Below, piece by piece: positions 1,021-52,400 of a stretch of DNA of 64,000 bases; the stretch's first letter is position 1, and every line of letters starts with the position of its first letter. The stretch comes from Sinonovacula constricta (Eukaryota > Mollusca > Bivalvia > Cardiida > Solecurtidae), in contig CM017559.1 of NCBI GenBank assembly GCA_007844125.1, positions 33,323,363 to 33,387,362 on the forward strand, given 5' to 3'. The notes under the pieces are model-generated. The model was not told the DNA's origin and did not search any database. It saw only the letters and a program-made list of their open reading frames with translations. A program made the position numbers and the translations under genes.

Positions 1021-1024
1021 GTTT

Positions 1025-1192
1025 TGTAACGACCGTAGGGTTAGAAATATAAGCGCTTCAAACCAGCCTCGCTGCTGGGTTAACTCTTTAGCGACGTGTT
1101 TTCAGCGGCTTCCAGAGTTGCGCGGTTAAGCAACGGTTACCGTGGCCGGTGTACGGATGGGTGACCGTTGGGGAGCGCCGGCCTGCGTTACA
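1025..1192 (+). repeat. LTR 1 of the TRIM-like array
   Basis: 168-bp LTR, TGTAACG...CGTTACA. It differs from the other three LTRs at about three positions (GACCGTAGGG and TTAGAAATAT early, TCCAGAG in the middle). An ATATAAG motif sits about 23 bases in and could be TATA-like. The right third carries the 5S-like block. Confidence 0.85.
1126..1181 (+). promoter_or_regulatory. 5S rRNA-like internal promoter segment in LTR 1
   Basis: TTAAGCA at 1126-1132 matches the box-A region of animal 5S rRNA genes (CTAAGCA). After exactly 22 bases, as in vertebrate 5S, GGATGGGTGACCG at 1155-1167 matches box C (GGATGGGAGACCG) at 12 of 13 positions. GGGGAGCGCCGG follows in register with the GGGAATACCGG of 5S. 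The 5' half of 5S is not clearly present, so this is a derived fragment and not a 5S gene. The same block recurs 270, 540 and 810 bases downstream. It would be expected to recruit TFIIIA/RNA polymerase III if functional; that role is inference. The 5S comparison is from memory of the family. Confidence 0.7.
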
Positions 1193-1193
1193 T

Positions 1194-1211
1194 TGGTGGC
1201 AGCGGTGGGAT
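1194..1211 (+). other. Primer-binding site, tRNA-Leu type
   Basis: TGGTGGCAGCGGTGGGAT begins one base after the LTR end. It is the reverse complement of the 3' end of animal tRNA-Leu (AAG/UAG), which ends ATCCCACCGCTGCCA plus CCA. That is an 18-base match, as expected of a reverse-transcription primer site. Copies are at 1464-1481 and 1734-1751. Confidence 0.8.
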
Positions 1212-1280
1212 AGTCAACTGCCGGACTGGAGTTGCGTGACCACGGAACTTCCCAGGCCAAGACTCGGGACGAGACTTCTC

Positions 1281-1291
1281 GGAGGGGGGAG
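1281..1291 (+). other. Polypurine tract
   Basis: GGAGGGGGGAG lies three bases upstream of LTR 2, the place where plus-strand synthesis is primed in LTR elements. Copies are at 1551-1561 and 1821-1831. Confidence 0.75.
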
Positions 1292-1294
1292 TAA

Positions 1295-1462
1295 TGTAAC
1301 GACCGCAGGGGTAGAAATATAAGCGCTTCAAACCAGCCTCGCTGCTGGGTTAACTCTTTAGCGACGTGTTTTCAGCGGCTTCCCGAGTTGCGCGGTTAAG
1401 CAACGGTTACCGTGGCCGGTGTACGGATGGGTGACCGTTGGGGAGCGCCGGCCTGCGTTACA
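1295..1462 (+). repeat. LTR 2 of the TRIM-like array
   Basis: 168-bp LTR with the same ends as LTR 1. It appears identical to LTRs 3 and 4. The 5S-like block lies at 1396-1451. Confidence 0.85.
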
Positions 1463-1564
1463 TTGGTGGCAGCGGTGGGATAGTCAACTGCCGGACTGGA
1501 GTTGCGTGCCCACGGAACTTCCCAGGCCAAGTCTCGGGACGAGACTTCTCGGAGGGGGGAGTAA

Positions 1565-1732
1565 TGTAACGACCGCAGGGGTAGAAATATAAGCGCTTCA
1601 AACCAGCCTCGCTGCTGGGTTAACTCTTTAGCGACGTGTTTTCAGCGGCTTCCCGAGTTGCGCGGTTAAGCAACGGTTACCGTGGCCGGTGTACGGATGG
1701 GTGACCGTTGGGGAGCGCCGGCCTGCGTTACA
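1565..1732 (+). repeat. LTR 3 of the TRIM-like array
   Basis: 168-bp LTR, apparently identical to LTR 2. The 5S-like block lies at 1666-1721. Confidence 0.85.
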
Positions 1733-1834
1733 TTGGTGGCAGCGGTGGGATAGTCAACTGCCGGACTGGAGTTGCGTGCCCACGGAACTTCCCAGGCCAA
1801 GTCTCGGGACGAGACTTCTCGGAGGGGGGAGTAA

Positions 1835-2002
1835 TGTAACGACCGCAGGGGTAGAAATATAAGCGCTTCAAACCAGCCTCGCTGCTGGGTTAACTCTTTA
1901 GCGACGTGTTTTCAGCGGCTTCCCGAGTTGCGCGGTTAAGCAACGGTTACCGTGGCCGGTGTACGGATGGGTGACCGTTGGGGAGCGCCGGCCTGCGTTA
2001 CA
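1835..2002 (+). repeat. LTR 4 of the TRIM-like array, outer 3' LTR
   Basis: 168-bp LTR ending CGTTACA directly before the GTTT duplication at 2003-2006. No primer site follows it, so it is the genuine outer end. The 5S-like block lies at 1936-1991. Confidence 0.85.
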
Positions 2003-2009
2003 GTTTGAA

Positions 2010-9989: not shown

Positions 9990-12385
9990 CATGGGCTGTC
10001 CCGGTTAATGGATAACCAAATGTTATATCCGAGAGGTCGGAGCAACAGTTGTTTCTTAGATGTCTGAACGTTTGAAAAACTGAACTGGCCCGGTTTCTAG
10101 ACAACCAAATGTTAAAGCCGAGAAGTCGGAGCAACAGTTGTTTCTAAGATGTTTTAACGTTTGAAAAACTAAGCTGTCCCGGTAGCTAGACAACTAAATG
10201 TTTTATCCGGGAAGTCGGAGCAACAGTTGTTTCTTACATGTTTTAACGTTTAAAAAACTGAACTGTCCCGGTTGCTAGACAACCAAATGTTATATCCGAG
10301 AAGTCGAAGCACAGTTGTTTCTTAGATGTTTGAACGTTTGAAAAACTGAGCTGTCCCGATCGCTAGACAACTAAATGTTTTATCCGGGAAGTCGGAGCAA
10401 CAGTTGTTTCTTACATGTTTGAACGTTTGAAAAACTGAACTGTCCCGGTTGCTAGACAACTTAATGTTATATCCGAGAATTAGGAGCAACAGTTGTTTCT
10501 TAGAGGTTTTACGTTTGAAAAACTTGGCTGTCGCGGTTGCTAAACAACCAAATGTAATATCCGGGAAGTCGGAGCAACAGTTGTTTCTTACATGTTTGAA
10601 CGTTTGAAAAACTGAACTGTCCCGGTTGCTAGACAACTAAATGTTATATCCGAGAATTAGGAGCAACAGTTGTTTCTTAGATGTTTTACGTTTGAAAAAC
10701 TGGGCTGTCACGGTTGCTAAACAACCAAATGTAATATTCGAGAAGTCGGAGCAACAGTTGTTTCTAAGATGTTTGAACGTTTGAAAAACTGAAATGTCCC
10801 GGTTGCTAGACAACCAAATGTTAAAGCCGAGAAGTCGGAGCAACAGTTGTTTCTAAGATGTTTTAACGTTTGAAAAACTAAGCTGTCCCGGTAGCTAGAC
10901 AACTAAATGTTTTATCCGGGAAGTCGGAGCAACAGTTGTTTCTTACATGTTTTAACGTTTAAAAAACTGAACTGTCCCGGTTGCTAGACAACCAAATGTT
11001 ATATCCGAGAAGTCGAAGCACAGTTGTTTCTTAGATGTTTGAACGTTTGAAAAACTGAGCTGTCCCGATCGCTAGACAACTAAATGTTTTATCCGGGAAG
11101 TCGGAGCAACAGTTGTTTCTTACATGTTTGAACGTTTGAAAAACTGAACTGTCCCGGTTGCTAGACAACTTAATGTTATATCCGAGAATTAGGAGCAACA
11201 GTTGTTTCTTAGAGGTTTTACGTTTGAAAAACTTGGCTGTCGCGGTTGCTAAACAACCAAATGTAATATCCGGGAAGTCGGAGCAACAGTTGTTTCTTAC
11301 ATGTTTGAACGTTTGAAAAACTGAACTGTCCCGGTTGCTAGACAACTAAATGTTATATCCGAGAATTAGGAGCAACAGTTGTTTCTTAGATGTTTTACGT
11401 TTGAAAAACTGGGCTGTCACGGTTGCTAAACAACCAAATGTAATATTCGAGAAGTCGGAGCAACAGTTGTTTCTAAGATGTTTGAACGTTTGAAAAACTG
11501 AAATGTCCCGGTTGCTAGACAACCAAATGTTAAAGCCGAGAAGTCGGAGCAACAGTTGTTTCTAAGATGTTTTAACGTTTGAAAAACTAAGCTGTCCCGG
11601 TAGCTAGACAACTAAATGTTTTATCCGGGAAGTCGGAGCAACAGTTGTTTCTTACATGTTTTAACGTTTAAAAAACTGAACTGTCCCGGTTGCTAGACAA
11701 CCAAATGTTATATCCGAGAAGTCGAAGCACAGTTGTTTCTTAGATGTTTGAACGTTTGAAAAACTGAGCTGTCCCGATCGCTAGACAACTAAATGTTTTA
11801 TCCGGGAAGTCGGAGCAACAGTTGTTTCTTACATGTTTGAACGTTTGAAAAACTGAACTGTCCCGGTTGCTAGACAACTTAATGTTATATCCGAGAATTA
11901 GGAGCAACAGTTGTTTCTTAGAGGTTTTACGTTTGAAAAACTTGGCTGTCGCGGTTGCTAAACAACCAAATGTAATATCCGGGAAGTCGGAGCAACAGTT
12001 GTTTCTTACATGTTTGAACGTTTGAAAAACTGAACTGTCCCGGTTGCTAGACAACTAAATGTTATATCCGAGAATTAGGAGCAACAGTTGTTTCTTAGAT
12101 GTTTTACGTTTGAAAAACTGGGCTGTCACGGTTGCTAAACAACCAAATGTAATATTCGAGAAGTCGGAGCAACAGTTGTTTCTAAGATGTTTGAACGTTT
12201 GAAAAACTGAAATGTCCCGGTTGCTAGACAACCAAATGTTATAGCCGAGAAGTCGGAGCAACAGTTGTTTCTAAGATGTTTTAACGTTTGAATACTGAGC
12301 TGCCCCGGTTGCTAGACAACTAAATATAATAACTGCGGAATCGAAGGAGCAACATTTATTTCTTAAAGAGATATTTGGACGTTGG
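9990..12385. repeat. Satellite with 709-bp higher-order repeat
   Basis: The basic monomer is about 89 bp, with core CTGTCCCGGTTGCTAGACAA and then a GGAGCAACAGTTGTTTCT block. Eight distinct monomers form a 709-bp higher-order unit, repeated about three times (10,174-10,882; 10,883-11,591; 11,592-12,300). Edge monomers at 9995 and 10,085 and after 12,300 are diverged. Copies 1 and 2 look essentially identical, and copy 3 carries a few changes near its end. Minus-strand open frames of 60-104 codons recur every 709 bp because the satellite does, not because they encode protein. Confidence 0.92.
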
Positions 12386-21339: not shown

Positions 21340-24300
21340 TGGCATATTTATACTGAATGTGTGTGTCTGTGCTTTTTTACGATGCTAATTGCGTTGCCTT
21401 GCGATGGCATATTTATACTACAATTGCATGTATTGTCACGATGTCCTTTTCTTTGCTTTGCGATGGCAGATTTATACTACATGTGTTTGTTACATGTTTT
21501 TTTCTTTTCTTTGCGATGAAAGATTTATACTACAGATGTATGTATTGTACTATTCACGATGTCTTTTTTTTTGCTATCCGATGGCAGATTTATACTACAT
21601 GTGTTTGTTACACACTTTTTAATTTGCTTTTAGATAGCAGATTTAAAGTCAATGTAAAGGTGACGATTCTTTTATGTTTTCTGTGTAATGACATATTCAA
21701 ATATTATTCTACATGTTCTACGTGTAATGTTCATTTCTTTACTTTGTGATATCAAAATTGTACTACAGATACTACTAACATTGCTTATTTCTGTGTTTTG
21801 TGATGGCAGAATTATATTACATGTTTTACTTACAATGCTTATTTCTGTGTCTTGTCGTGGCATAATTATAGTATATGTTTTACTTACATTGCGTATTTCT
21901 GTATCTTGTCGTGGCAGAATTATAGTATATGTTCTACTTACATTGCGTATTTCTGTGTCTTGTCGTGGCAGAATTATAGTATATGTTCTACTTACATTGC
22001 GTATTTCTGTGTCTTGTGGCGGCAGAATTATAGTATATGTTCTACTTACATTGCGTATTTCTGTGTCTTGTGGCGGCAGAATTATAGTATATGTTCTACT
22101 TACATTGCGTATTTCTGTGTCTTGTCGTGGCAGAATTATAGTATATGTTCTACTTACATTGCGTATTTCTGTGTCTTGTGGCGGCAGAATTATAGTATAT
22201 GTTCTACTTACAATGCGTATTTCTGTGTCTTGTGGCGGCAGAATTATAGTATATGTTCTACTTACATTGCGTATTTCTGTGTCTTGTCGTGGCAGAATTA
22301 TAGTATATATTCTACTTACATTGCGTATTTCTGTGTCTTGTCGCGGCAGAATTATACTACATGTTCTACTTACAATGCGTATTTCTGTGTCTTGTGGCGG
22401 CAGAATTATACTACATGTCCTACTTACAATGCGTATTTCTGTGTCTTGTGGCAGCAGAATTATACTACATGTTCTACTTACAATGCGTATTTCTGTGTCT
22501 TGTGGTGGCAGAATTATAATACATGTTCTACTTACAATGCGTATTTCTGTGTCTTGTGGCGGCAGAATTATAGTATATGTTCTACTTACAATGCGTATTT
22601 CTGTGTCTTGTGGCGGCAGAATTATACTACATGTTTTACTTACAACGCGTATTTCTGTGTCTTGTGGTGGCAGAATTATACTATATGTTCTACTTACAAT
22701 GCGTATTTCTGTGTCTTGTGGTGGCAGAATTATACTACATGTTCTACTTACAATGCGTATTTCTGTGTCTTGTGATGGCAGAATTATACTACATGTTCTA
22801 CTTACAATGCGTATTTCTGTGTCTTGTGGCGGCAGAATTATACTACATGTTCTACTTACAATGCGTATTTCTGTGTCTTGTGATGGCAGAATTATACTAC
22901 ATGTTCTACTTAGAATGCGTATTTCTGTGTCTTGTGGCGGCAGAATTATACTACATGTTCTACTTAGAATGCGTATTTCTGTGTCTTGTCTTGGCAGAAT
23001 TATACTGCATGTTCTACTTACAATGCGTATTTCTGTGTCTTGTGGCGGCAGAATTATACTACATGTTTACTTACAATGCTTATTTCTGTGTCTTGTGGCG
23101 GCAGAATTATACTACATGTTCTACTTACAATGCGTATTTCTGTGTCTTGTGGTGGCAGAATTATAATACATGTTCTACTTACAATGCGTATTTCTGTGTC
23201 TTGTGGCGGCAGAATTATACTACATGTTTACTTACAATGCTTATTTCTGTGTCATGTGGCGGCAGAATTATAGTATATGTTCTACTTACAATGCGTATTT
23301 CTGTGTCTTGTCGTGGCAGAATAAACTACATGTTCTACTTACAATGCATATTTCTGTGTCTTGTCGTGGCAGAATTATACTACATGTTCTACTTACATTG
23401 CGCATTTCTGTGTCTTGTGGCGTCCAGAATTATAGTATATGTTCTACTTACAATGCGTATTTCTGTGTCTTGTCGTGACAGAATTATACTATATGTTCTA
23501 CTTACAATGCGTATTTCTGTGTCTTGTGGCGGCAGAATTATAGAATATGTTCTACTTACAATGCGTATTTCTGTGTCTTGTGGCGGCAGAATTATTCTAT
23601 ATGTTCTACTTACAATGCGTATTTCTGTGTCTTGTGGCGTCCAGAATTATACTATATGTTCTACTTACAATGCGTATTTCTGTGTCTTGTCGTGGCAGAA
23701 TTATGCTATATGTTCTACTTACAATGCGTATTTCTGTGTCTTGTCGTGGCAGAATTATACTACATGTTCTACTTACAATGAGTATTTCTGTGTCTTGTGA
23801 TGGCAGAATTATACTACATGTTCTACTTACAATGCGTATTTCTTTGTTTTGTCGTGGCAGAATTATACTACATGTTTACTTACAATGCTTATTTCTGTGT
23901 CATGTGGCGGCAGAATTATACTACATGTTCTACTCACAATGCGTATTTCTGTGTCTTGTGGCGGCAGAATTATACTATATGTTCTACTTACAATGCGTAT
24001 TTCTGTGTCTTGTCGTGGCAGAATGATAGAATATGTTCTACTAACAATGCTTATTTCTGTGTCTTGTGGCGGCAGAATTATACTATATGTTCTACTTACA
24101 TCGTATATTTCTGTGTCTTGTGGCGTCCAGAATAATAGTATATGTTCTACTTACAATGCGTATTTCTGTGTCTTGTCGTGGCAGAATTATAGTATATGTT
24201 CTACTTGCGGCAAAATTATAGTTTATGTTCTACGTACATTGCTTTTTTTTGTCTTGTGGCGGCAGAAATATGGTATATGTTCTACGTACATTGCTTATTT

Positions 24301-25130
24301 CTTTGTCTTGTGATGGCAGAATTATATTACATGTTCTACTTACAATGCGTATTTCTGTTTCTCGTCCTGGCAGAATTATAGAATATGTTCTACTTACAAT
24401 GCGTATTTCTGTGTCTTGTGGTGGCAAAATTTTACTGCATGTTCTACTAACAATGCGTATTTCTTTTTCTTTTGGTGGCAGAATTATATTGCATGTTCTT
24501 TTTACAATGCTTATTTTTGTGTCTTGTGATTGCAGAATTATACTACATGTTCTACTTACATTGCGTATTTCTGTGTCTTGTGATGACAGAATTATACTAC
24601 ATGTTCTACTTACGATGCGTATTTCTGTGTCTTGTGATGGCAGAATATTCTACATGTTCTACTAACAATGCCTTTTTCTGTGTCTTGTGATGGCAGAATT
24701 ATACTATATGTTCTACTAACAATGCCCTTTTCTGTGTCTTGTGATGGCAGAATATACTACATGTTCTACTTACAATGCCTTTTTCTGTGTCTTGTGATGG
24801 CAGAATTATACTACATGTTCTACTAACAATGCGTATTTCTGTGTCTTGTGATGGCAGAATATACTACATGTTCTACTAACAATGCCTTTTTCTGTGTCTT
24901 GTGATGGCAGAATTATACTACATGTTCTACTAACAATGCGTATTTCTGTGTCTTGTGGCGGCAGAATATACTACATGTTCTACTAACAATGCCTTTTTCT
25001 GTGTCTTGTGATGGCAGAATTATACTACATGTTCTACTTACAGTGCTTATTTTTTGTCTTGTGCTGAGCCATACTACTGCTGGATACTACTACTGCTTGC
25101 GATGCTTATTTCTTTTTTGTGGTTGCAGAT
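21340..25130 (+). repeat. 54-bp minisatellite array, about 65-70 units
   Basis: The unit reads AATTATACTACATGTTCTAC, TTACAATGCGTATTTCTGTG, TCTTGTGGCGGCAG. Its length of 54 is a multiple of 3, so all three forward frames run long (up to 492 codons at 21,688-23,166) with repeating nonsense peptides. Units between about 21,900 and 24,200 are homogeneous with GGCGG, CGTGG or GATGG variants. Both edges (21,360-21,780 and 24,650-25,130) are diverged or shortened, as unequal exchange predicts. Each unit contains a pyrimidine-rich stretch ending in GCAG and, on the minus strand, GTAAGTAG. Confidence 0.93.
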
Positions 25131-27845: not shown

Positions 27846-27850
27846 GTAGA

Positions 27851-28260
27851 GGCATGTGACTGCTGTGTGAGGAGGCATGTGACTGCTGTGTGGGGAGGCA
27901 TGTGACTGCTGTGTGGGAGGCATGTGACTGCTGTGTGGGGAGGCATGTGACTGCTGTGTGGGGAGGCATGTGACTGCTGTGTGGGGAGGCATGTGACTGC
28001 TGTGTGGGGAGGCATGTGACTGCTGTGTGGGAGGCATGTGACTGCTGTGTGGGGAGGCATGTGACTGCTGTGTGGGGAGGCATGTGACTGCTGTGTGAGA
28101 AGGCATGTGACTGCTGTGTGGGGAGGCATGTGACTGCTTTGTGGGGAGGCATGTGACTGCTGTGTGAGGAGGCATGTGACTGCTGTGTGGGGAGGCATGT
28201 GACTGCTGTGTGGGAGGCATGTGACTGCTGTGTGGGGAGACATGTGACTGCTGTGTGGGA
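27851..28260. repeat. 23-bp minisatellite, about 18 units
   Basis: Unit CATGTGACTGCTGTGTGGGG plus AGG, with 22-bp and GAGGAGG variants. Minus-strand frames of about 145 codons (SHMPPHTAVTCLP-type) are an artefact of the repeat. Confidence 0.92.
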
Positions 28261-49400: not shown

Positions 49401-52400
49401 AAGAAAGTATAGAACACATGTTTGAGTTTGTACCAAGGAAGAGTTTCATATGTATGAAGCCAAAAATAGAAACAAAAACAACTCTCTGTTTGAAAAAAAA
49501 AGAAAAAATGACTACCTACCTCTGACAGTGTTTACTGAAGATGCAATAGAGAGCACTTCTTATTGCTTCTTTTTTTTAATAATAATTTTATTAAAATGTT
49601 AATTAAGCTTGTGTTTTGAAGAGGTCTGTGAAGGAAATGAAAATGATTGTATTGTTGTTGCTGTGGTTGATGATAATTATAATGTTGGTGATGATGAAAA
49701 TGTTGTTGACGGTGATGTTACTCATGTTGGTGATGATGATATCATTGTTATTGTTGATGATAGCCATTGTAGTGATGATTATAATGTTATTGTTATAGAA
49801 AATGATAATCATTGTGGTGATGCTAGTAATGTTGTTGATGATGATGATGATGGTGGTCATGATCATAATAATGTTGTTGTTGAGGATTTTACTGATGATA
49901 ATGTGATTGATGTGGCATTAAGTGATCATGCTGATGTTGATAATTATGATGACATTGATAACAGAAACCTTTATTTAAAACAAAAAACTTAAATTGTGTT
50001 ATAAATATATGATATTATGTTAGCAATCAATCATTTTAACAAATCTATTGGTGGGTAAAACTCACACACGCACACTTCTATTGATGCTCGTTAATGTGAA
50101 ACCTTAAAAAAAAGCTAAAGCAATTATAAATAATTACAAACAAAATATAACACCCAAGACCAAAATTGCATTAACCTAACTGTGCAATATAAACCTCAAC
50201 CATTTGTAAACAAGTTTTCTTTATTATTTTGTGAAATGTAACACACTTCATTTACTGCAAAATTACAATAATGTCCTAATACATGAGAACTCAAGATTAG
50301 AAGTAGAGGATATTTAATACAAATGTTAAAACGCTGGACCTGGTAGAGCAATTGGTAGAGTGTTGGCCACGATTTGGAACCTGCTACATACCAAACTCAT
50401 TAAAAAGGTAGTGAGATAGCTCCCTTTCTTTTTGCTTTTGAGATACATCACAGCAACCAATTATGATTATTGTAGTGACGTCCAGCTATTTCGGTGGAGA
50501 AAGACCCTAGCAAAACATCTGGGTAGAACCACCAGCGTACCACAGGTCAGCTAGAAGACCTTCTGAGTTCTCACATTATGTCCTTCGCCGCAAATCAGAC
50601 TCGAACCCACGCGGTGGGAGGCTAAGCAGTCAGAGGAGCTACAAATCGGCGACCACTTTGACACTGGCACTCACCCTGCTCCCTTTCTTATGCTTCAGCA
50701 AACATAGGCTGGTAGGAGGGTAGTTCCAGTGTCATGATTATGTAACTGGGTGTGGTATCATGCTTTCACCGCACGCTAAACACAGACAAGGCAGCACTAT
50801 ATCCACTCCAAGTAGACATTGTCTCCATATTGTTTAAATATCAACCTCAGGTTTGGTGAAAATTTTATGATACCTTGTTTCATCATTTTTACTATGCTAA
50901 TTTTCTTTATTGGGTTCATCGTCCCATCAACAGTACTTGTATTCTGGCATGATACCACAGCCAGTCACATTTTCCAGACACCAAGCCAACCAGTCATGGA
51001 ACTACCTTTATATTTGTTGGAGCATTATCAAGGGATCTATACCACTACCACATTTTTAATGACTTCGGTATGGCATAGGCCAGGATCTAACCTGGGCCTC
51101 CTGTACCTTGAGCTGAAACTCTGCTGAGTGGGCTGCCAGGTTTGGTCTGCTAATCTTGAGTACGGTATACAACCACAAACCAAGGTAAATAATTCAAAAC
51201 ACTTACCTCTGTACACCAAATTTTCTATGATACAAAGGCTCAACATCAAAAGCAGATCGAGCGCCGCACAAATCTGGATAGGCAGTTTTCTCAAACTTAT
51301 ACACCGAGATCGTCTTCCGAGCAAACTCCTGATACATGATGGGGTCATGGGAAACTTCAAGAAAATCGTCGTCCTCGTCATATGGAGACGAAAACCTGTC
51401 AAAGTCTTCATCTTGTTCTCGTATACTAGGAATTGGTGTAATACACAAAGCATCACTAAAGGTGGGTATCATTTCACTAACAACCTGCTCACTAGGCACT
51501 TCCTTACTCAATTTCCTTACTTTCTTTTCCTTTCCACCCTTTTTAGATCCTTTGGCCTTCTTAGACTTCTGAGACGATGTGGAGAGTTTACGCAAGTTTG
51601 AATTTGATGATTTATTTCCCTGAGAAGGCGGAAAGTCGAGCGAAATAACACTTGCACCAGTTTTTAGATTTATCACACTAGCCGTGTCTGGACGCAGACT
51701 GTTTGCATAGAGACTGAAATATTCTGTGTCACAACTTGGATGTGCTCTTTGGCTCGGCCTACCACTAGAGTAACCTGATGTGTCTGTAAAGTCACTTCCA
51801 CTAGTCTGGGAGCGATATAACTGAGATGGACAGGAGATTGACTTGTGGAGATTTTCTACTGTCACTGGATATACAGCTGATGTTTGGCCTCCTGGAGAGG
51901 TTTGTTTTACCCGAGATCGGTCTTTAATAGACCCTGGGTCTGCTCCAGATTCATATAATGCTGTGGGTATGACAATAGAATCCTGTCCTTCCTCTTGTAC
52001 TTCAAACTCAAAGAGCTCAGGAAAGAAAGTGTTGTACATTCGCAAATCTTCTGGTGTTCGTTTACAAGCCTCTGGAGCACTCTCGGTAGGGTCGTCTTCA
52101 GCCTGATAAGAATTTTTTTATTGTAAACTTTAATTTGAACTTTTGTATTTGTATCTTGGTTTTATGGCACACTGACACTTGATAGGGCATAAGGCACAAA
52201 ATACATTGAAGTTTAACGAGAATACACTATATTTAGGTTAAAATTAAAATACTTGTGAATAAATATAAAAATCTATCAGGTTAAAATAATGTGAATTATA
52301 ATTGAAAACAGGTAAACATATTACACAGTTTAAAAAAGTATAACACGAATATAATGAAGAGTTTAAAATTCATAACTCATTAAGAATACTCGTACATGCA

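What the first reader, a model, noticed from the sequence alone, without database searches (positions are those of the whole stretch)
1021..2006. Cassandra-like TRIM array in an animal genome
Four 168-bp TG...CA LTRs, three 102-bp interiors with an 18-base tRNA-Leu primer match and a polypurine tract, a 4-bp GTTT duplication at the outer ends, no coding sequence, and a 5S rRNA-like block in every LTR. In plants, Cassandra TRIMs carry 5S sequence in their LTRs. I do not recall an animal equivalent; this would be an independent capture of a polymerase III promoter by an LTR element.
Basis: partly seen in the sequence, partly recalled or inferred. Interest (0 to 1): 0.92.

Follow-up and report, generated by a model that had tools for sequence, protein, structure and literature searches.

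The report
5S-promoter miniature LTR retrotransposon
A tiny, gene-less jumping element in this probably animal genome carries the internal promoter of the 5S ribosomal RNA gene inside its terminal repeats; it is real and has inserted at many different sites, but a comparable animal element (Ajax of ribbon worms) was already described in 2024.

Summary
Window 1025-2002 is LTR-int-LTR-int-LTR-int-LTR (168/102 bp) with a GTTT duplication, an 18-nt primer site and a polypurine tract. In its own genome, 40 fetched loci stand for 37 sites; 31 of 40 have a perfect, varied 4-bp duplication: a mobile TRIM, not a satellite. The LTR block matches this genome's own 5S gene: box A 11/11, box C 13/13, same spacing, 31/48 over the control region, 0 of 20,000 shuffles as good. 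It lacks the 5S 5' half and Rfam does not report it: a promoter fragment. In 108 LTR copies the boxes vary about a third as much as the rest. "No animal equivalent" is wrong: Ajax (Kojima 2024, PMC10886601), a nemertean TRIM, has a 5S-promoter LTR and tRNA-Leu site; it makes 5-bp, this family 4-bp duplications. New leads: the interior seems shared with a TRIM whose LTR lacks the 5S boxes (weak hits), and 10 of 20 arrays mix LTR lineages. Pol III transcription, host name, solo LTRs and helper are untested.

The parts
1021..1024 (.). target-site duplication GTTT, left
   Evidence: 4-bp duplications at 31 of 40 loci in the same genome
1025..1192 (+). LTR 1 (168 bp, TG...CA)
   Evidence: 3 differences from LTRs 2-4
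1048..1053 (+). TATA-like TATAAG at LTR positions 24-29 (also starting at 1318, 1588, 1858)
   Evidence: ATATAAG in 103 of 108 LTR copies
1075..1075 (+). place that corresponds to 5S +1 (LTR position 51; also 1345, 1615, 1885); predicted start, not measured
1125..1135 (+). 5S box A-like GTTAAGCAACG (also 1395-1405, 1665-1675, 1935-1945)
   Evidence: identical to the host 5S gene; present in 99 of 108 LTR copies
1155..1167 (+). 5S box C-like GGATGGGTGACCG (also 1425-1437, 1695-1707, 1965-1977)
   Evidence: identical to the host 5S gene at the same spacing; present in 95 of 108 LTR copies
1193..1294 (+). interior 1 (102 bp)
1194..1211 (+). primer-binding site TGGTGGCAGCGGTGGGAT (also 1464-1481, 1734-1751)
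   Evidence: exact in 51 of 65 interiors; tRNA-Leu label recalled
1281..1291 (+). polypurine tract GGAGGGGGGAG (also 1551-1561, 1821-1831)
   Evidence: GGAGGGGGGAGTAA exact in 46 of 65 interiors
1295..1462 (+). LTR 2
1463..1564 (+). interior 2
1565..1732 (+). LTR 3
1733..1834 (+). interior 3
1835..2002 (+). LTR 4
2003..2006 (.). target-site duplication GTTT, right

Best explanation
[quoted passage not shown] Inferred mechanism: TFIIIA/TFIIIC/Pol III start RNA near LTR position 51 of the 5' LTR. The RNA runs through interior and 3' LTR, because most examined copies contain neither a T4 stop nor a poly(A) signal. A tRNA (probably Leu) primes reverse transcription at the primer site, the purine tract primes the second strand, and the enzymes of an autonomous element, probably Gypsy-type, insert the cDNA with a 4-bp duplication. 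Arrays form when elements recombine through their LTRs. Shown: structure, dispersal, 4-bp duplications, 5S boxes and their lower variability, mixed LTR lineages in half of the arrays counted. Inferred: Pol III use, primer tRNA identity, helper element, recombination route.
For: Structure. Dispersal: 43 matches on C1-C9, C11-C19 and C98; 31 of 40 loci with perfect 4-bp duplications, none longer; 37 independent sites, 30 with a duplication. Young copies: 4 of 13 LTR-int-LTR loci have identical LTRs and the other 9 differ at 1-2 of 168 sites. 5S: (0 of 20,000 shuffles). Reverse test: a profile made from the TRIM LTRs finds complete 5S genes of C12/C13 on the right strand at E 4.8e-5 to 5.7e-5 in 165,630 held bases; weakest other hits were E 0.0037-0.0099. 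Constraint: boxes 0.0123 against 0.0397 minority fraction, 2 of 167 circular shifts as low (my box A interval there was one base early). No AATAAA/ATTAAA in 108 LTRs and 65 interiors; T4 in 7 of 108 and 2 of 65. Arrays: 10 of 20 mix LTR lineages against 1 of 12 single elements, Fisher p 0.023.
Against: No transcript was seen. The middle element (positions 67-72 as recalled, 3 of 6), the 5' half (13 of 48) and the 3' end (2 of 11) do not match 5S. Rfam's 5S model does not report the block, and the fold of LTR 51-168 is no better than shuffles (z -0.09). The TATA-like box would also serve Pol II. The four LTRs of this very window carry a T4 run (LTR 75-78) that most copies lack, so this array may be transcribed poorly. 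Lack of T4 and AATAAA may be chance in a short GC-rich sequence. The 40 loci are those nearest a 986-bp array query, so arrays are over-represented. Arrays offer more LTR pairs than singles, which helps the lineage-mixing count.
Confidence: 0.8

Rival explanations
1. It is an Ajax family proper, by descent or horizontal transfer between nemerteans and this host, rather than a separate capture of 5S.
For: Same design and size class (438 bp for one element against 421 and 434), promoter-only 5S block, tRNA-Leu primer site in Ajax.
Against: Ajax gives 5-bp duplications; here all 31 detected duplications are 4 bp. The Ajax sequence could not be compared (no supplement look-ups).
Confidence: 0.3
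2. The 5S block is a relic and the element is transcribed by Pol II from the TATA-like box, like an ordinary TRIM.
For: ATATAAG in 103 of 108 LTR copies; the sibling reading has a TATAAA-encodable site at LTR 25 and no box A-to-C signature.
Against: Box A and box C are the least variable LTR segments after the TATA-like box; no AATAAA/ATTAAA in 108 LTRs or 65 interiors.
Confidence: 0.25
3. A plain tandem satellite with chance resemblance to an LTR element.
For: Head-to-tail array of near-identical units.
Against: 37 independent sites, exact TG...CA ends at most loci, varied 4-bp duplications, 13 LTR-int-LTR loci.
Confidence: 0.01
4. Arrays grew at each site by unequal crossing-over within one insertion, without mixing of elements.
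For: The window's array (L002) and L003, L014, L018, L024 show one LTR lineage each; units 2-3 here are identical.
Against: 10 of 20 arrays hold LTRs that differ at two or more of five lineage-marking positions, against 1 of 12 singles.
Confidence: 0.35

Closest known systems
Ajax (Kojima 2024, PMC10886601; nemertean TRIMp3)
   Same: TRIM; promoter-only 5S block in LTR; tRNA-Leu primer site (label recalled for this element); 421/434 bp against 438 bp here
   Different: Ajax makes 5-bp duplications, this one 4-bp; Ajax reported from two nemerteans only; sequence similarity untested
Cassandra (plants; PMC7215508, passages)
   Same: 5S box A/C in LTR, short interior, tandem LTR-interior arrays; published signature met with 3 mismatches
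   Different: Primer site TGGTATCAGAGC in Cassandra, TGGTGGCAGCGG here; 565-860 bp; Cassandra carries Pol III promoters and terminators
Helenus of animals (PMC10886601)
   Same: proposed TRIMp3 with 4-bp duplications in animals; found in bivalves of Pteriomorphia
   Different: tRNA-derived, not 5S-derived LTR
biv-TRIM (PMC6934838)
   Same: Bivalve TRIM with singles and tandem arrays, G-rich purine tract
   Different: 202-218 bp repeats, 77-80 bp interior, no clear tRNA primer site; its primers do not match the window

Membership tests
TRIM | short direct terminal repeats, TG...CA, short non-coding interior with primer site and polypurine tract | tested here: met
TRIM | dispersed insertions with target-site duplications | tested here: met
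   31 of 40 loci, 30 of 37 independent sites
TRIM | solo LTRs | not tested
   the LTR-only search did not complete
TRIMp3 (5S type) | 5S-derived box A and box C in the LTR at native spacing | tested here: met
TRIMp3 (5S type) | transcription by Pol III | not testable with these tools
   no expression data
Ajax | promoter-only 5S block with box A, IE, box C | tested here: inconclusive
   box A and C met; IE (positions recalled) only 3 of 6
Ajax | tRNA-Leu primer site | tested here: inconclusive
   site exact at 3 places but the tRNA label is recalled
Ajax | 5-bp target-site duplication | tested here: not met
   31 of 40 loci have a duplication and all 31 are 4 bp
Ajax | sequence similarity to the Ajax-1 families | not testable with these tools
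   Repbase and paper supplements not available
Cassandra | primer site TGGTATCAGAGC | tested here: not met
   site here is TGGTGGCAGCGG
Cassandra | published box A/box C signature | tested here: inconclusive
   3 mismatches; 2 of 20,000 shuffles as good
Helenus | tRNA-like sequence in LTR | tested here: not met
   ARAGORN, run with its bacterial code, finds no tRNA in the window; a degenerate relic was not excluded
biv-TRIM | published terminal-repeat primers | tested here: not met
   0 matches at up to 3 mismatches in the window
5S rRNA gene | match to Rfam RF00001 | tested here: not met

The most novel reading that the evidence does not exclude
A third, independent capture of the 5S Pol III promoter by an LTR element (after Cassandra and Ajax). 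Here it is served by a 4-bp-duplicating, Gypsy-like integration machinery, and it arose by swapping the LTR body of a TRIM whose interior end, primer site and LTR start survive in a sibling family without 5S boxes.
Probability: 0.5. Interest if true: 0.62.

Novelty: new member of a known kind. Interest (0 to 1): 0.45.

Why it matters
It adds a further, probably animal, family with a different duplication length to the very short list of LTR elements that carry a 5S promoter. Young copies (LTRs with 0-2 differences) and the host's own 5S genes in the same assembly make Pol III use directly testable. If the shared chassis is confirmed, it shows an LTR element changing promoter class while keeping its replication signals.

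Tried and rejected
Rfam 5S model: no match; kept as a result against full 5S identity. Recalled 5S genes: weak support, later replaced by the host gene. Pattern scans of viral contigs: nothing. One genome-contig hit (L001, an archaeal MAG) aligns over 25 bases only; I read it as chance inside a coding stretch. Antisense frame as protein query: no candidate. Pfam on ten window frames: nothing. Steamer as helper: I recalled a Leu primer site; one search found no paper, and of the seven papers listed I looked at passages of three. One states that a mussel Steamer-like element uses tRNA-Asn; the others did not settle it. Left open. biv-TRIM primers: no match in the window. Origin from the divergent C4 5S cluster: two copies score 37 and 32 against 40 for the C12 gene, so not preferred. 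Helper element, sibling family in this genome and solo LTRs: asked, not answered (and repeats).

Full report
What is there. Window 1025-2002 consists of four 168-bp LTRs and three 102-bp interiors, in the order LTR-int-LTR-int-LTR-int-LTR, flanked by GTTT on both sides. The element ends are TGTAAC...GTTACA. The 18-base primer site occurs exactly three times in 64 kb, one base inside each interior, and GGAGGGGGGAG precedes each inner LTR. LTRs 2-4 and interiors 2-3 are identical; unit 1 differs at 5 of 270 sites. No frame of 90 aa or more crosses the array. The unit is 58% GC in a 35% GC window. BLAST found no further copy of LTR or interior in the window.

It is mobile. The genome search was answered once with the array as query: 43 matches, with 40 of 2249 first-look candidates scored. 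The assembly has 1,219,916,990 bases. I hold 40 loci including the window's own. 13 have two LTRs, 22 have three, 3 have four and 2 have five, truncated LTRs counted. 31 of 40 have a perfect 4-bp flanking duplication and none a longer one. Three pairs of loci share both 150-bp flanks and are duplicated copies, which leaves 37 independent sites, 30 of them with a duplication. The nine loci without one are truncated or diverged copies (L017, L024, L025, L026, L027) and L016, L023, L040, L041. Four of 13 single elements have identical LTRs and the other nine (one duplicated pair among them) differ at 1-2 of 168 sites, so activity is recent. The array query favours arrays, so these proportions are not genome-wide. 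Solo LTRs were not tested.

The 5S block. Local and ungapped scores against human 5S were reached by 18 and 2 of 2,000 shuffles, nhmmer gave E 0.22, a five-gene position-weight score was reached by 0 of 20,000 shuffles, and the published Cassandra signature fits with 3 mismatches, which 2 of 20,000 shuffles reached. Rfam's model reports nothing. The genome's own 5S genes were then found (29 matches, 47 of 20,622 candidates scored; 10 of 10 fetched C12 copies identical). Against that gene, GTTAAGCAACG (box A) and GGATGGGTGACCG (box C) are identical and at the same spacing. Positions 50-97 match at 31 of 48 (at most 28 in 20,000 shuffles), the middle element at only 3 of 6, the 5' half at 13 of 48 and the 3' end at 2 of 11 (box limits are recalled). 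In reverse, a profile of the TRIM LTRs finds complete C12/C13 5S genes on the correct strand at E about 5e-5 in 165,630 held bases, a set that I had enriched with 5S loci; hits cut by a locus end score 0.006, and the weakest other hits are 0.0037-0.0099. So the block is a promoter-only 5S fragment. In 108 LTR copies the two boxes vary about a third as much as the rest (0.0123 against 0.0397; 2 of 167 circular shifts as low; the box A interval used was one base early). The TATA-like hexamer is the least variable segment (0.0077), while the primer site varies about as much as the whole interior (0.0243 against 0.0256).

How it probably works. The place that corresponds to 5S +1 is LTR position 51, about 27 bases after the start of a TATA-like TATAAG at 24-29. 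A Pol III start there would put the 5S block in the transcribed part of the LTR. No AATAAA or ATTAAA occurs in 108 LTRs or 65 interiors, and a T4 run is absent from 101 of 108 LTRs and 63 of 65 interiors. The RNA could thus run through the 3' LTR and end in the flank, and strong-stop DNA of LTR 51-168 could still anneal to the 3' LTR. The window's array is unusual: a T at LTR position 75, where 102 of 108 copies have G, makes T4 in all four of its LTRs. The mechanism in this paragraph is inference; no transcript was examined.

Arrays. At five LTR positions where two letters are common (73, 79, 93, 94, 122), 10 of 20 arrays hold LTRs differing at two or more, against 1 of 12 single elements (Fisher p 0.023). 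Five diverged loci (L021, L022, L025, L026, L027) and three duplicates (L020, L023, L041) were dropped before this count, and arrays offer more LTR pairs than singles. This suggests recombination between different elements through their LTRs, as models for TRIM arrays cited in PMC6934838 (Discussion) propose. The window's own array shows one lineage and may have grown locally.

A sibling without 5S. A translated frame of the unit, searched at E up to 10, had 6 candidates and 4 hits at E 2.3e-3, 0.051, 0.070 and 0.21, each from one ENA contig of 1.5-4.7 Mb. The antisense frame found none. None of these E-values passes the tool's default of 1e-3; the case rests on the following structure. All four contain PRPSLGTRLLGGGSNVT, for which the window's interior end, purine tract and LTR start are an exact coding sequence. 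In three of four an exact copy of the 18-base primer site is encodable 58-61 nt upstream (57 in the window; 0 of 20,000 residue shuffles each). The fourth, P0017, has one mismatch at 67 nt (1 of 20,000). I read them as accidental frames across a TRIM with a 104-113 bp interior and, in P0017, a 166-bp LTR. Neither box C nor the box A-to-C signature can be encoded in any of the four; a lone box A is encodable in P0019 and a tRNA box B-like string in P0020. TATAAA is encodable at LTR 25 in P0017, which is weak evidence. The source organisms are unknown. If right, the 5S body replaced another LTR body on a kept chassis, or the reverse.

Known relatives. Kojima 2024 (PMC10886601: abstract, methods, results, discussion, figure legends read) describes Ajax from two nemerteans: a 5S-promoter LTR, tRNA-Leu primer, 421/434 bp, 5-bp duplications. 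It also describes Helenus with tRNA-derived LTRs and, in animals, 4-bp duplications. So the kind is known in animals. The present family fails one tested Ajax feature (duplication length) and its sequence could not be compared. biv-TRIM (PMC6934838: abstract, results, discussion, passages) differs in size and lacks a clear primer site; its primers do not match the window. Cassandra (PMC7215508: passages) has another primer site. The listings of ten answered paper searches (open-licence papers only) showed no report of a 5S-type TRIM in an animal other than Ajax; a 2026 meeting report mentions Ajax (PMC12859917, passages).

Host. It is not named. The 18 large contigs whose lengths I saw (C1-C9, C11-C19) sum to about 1.155 of 1.220 Gb; C10 and C20 were not seen, so nineteen chromosomes is an inference. 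Nineteen chromosomes and this size fit heterodont bivalves, by recall only. A window exon (51203-52117, minus strand) has 16 homologues, the best 58% identical, without organism names.

Noticed in passing
G000:C4:22563941-22604139 (L052, L053): A second, divergent tandem 5S cluster (16 matches of 52.8-66.4 bits against 115.1 for 13 on C12/C13), many at about 1.1-kb spacing; in the two copies compared the 5' half and both boxes are kept and the 3' end is changed.
   Followed up: partly
window 1099-1102, 1369-1372, 1639-1642, 1909-1912: All four LTRs of this array have a T4 run that most copies in the genome lack (7 of 108 have T4 anywhere, these four included); it could stop Pol III.
   Followed up: partly
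L003 interiors 2-4: A five-LTR array whose last three interiors share a 5-base deletion that the first interior lacks, as if units were copied within or between arrays.
   Followed up: no
window 9996-12325: Satellite array of 89/177-bp units.
   Followed up: no
window 21772-25063: Long array of 54-bp units.
   Followed up: no
window 27849-28260: 23-bp minisatellite, about 18 copies.
   Followed up: no
window 51203-52117 (minus): Likely exon of a conserved uncharacterised protein, 58% identical to P0001; no Pfam match.
   Followed up: partly
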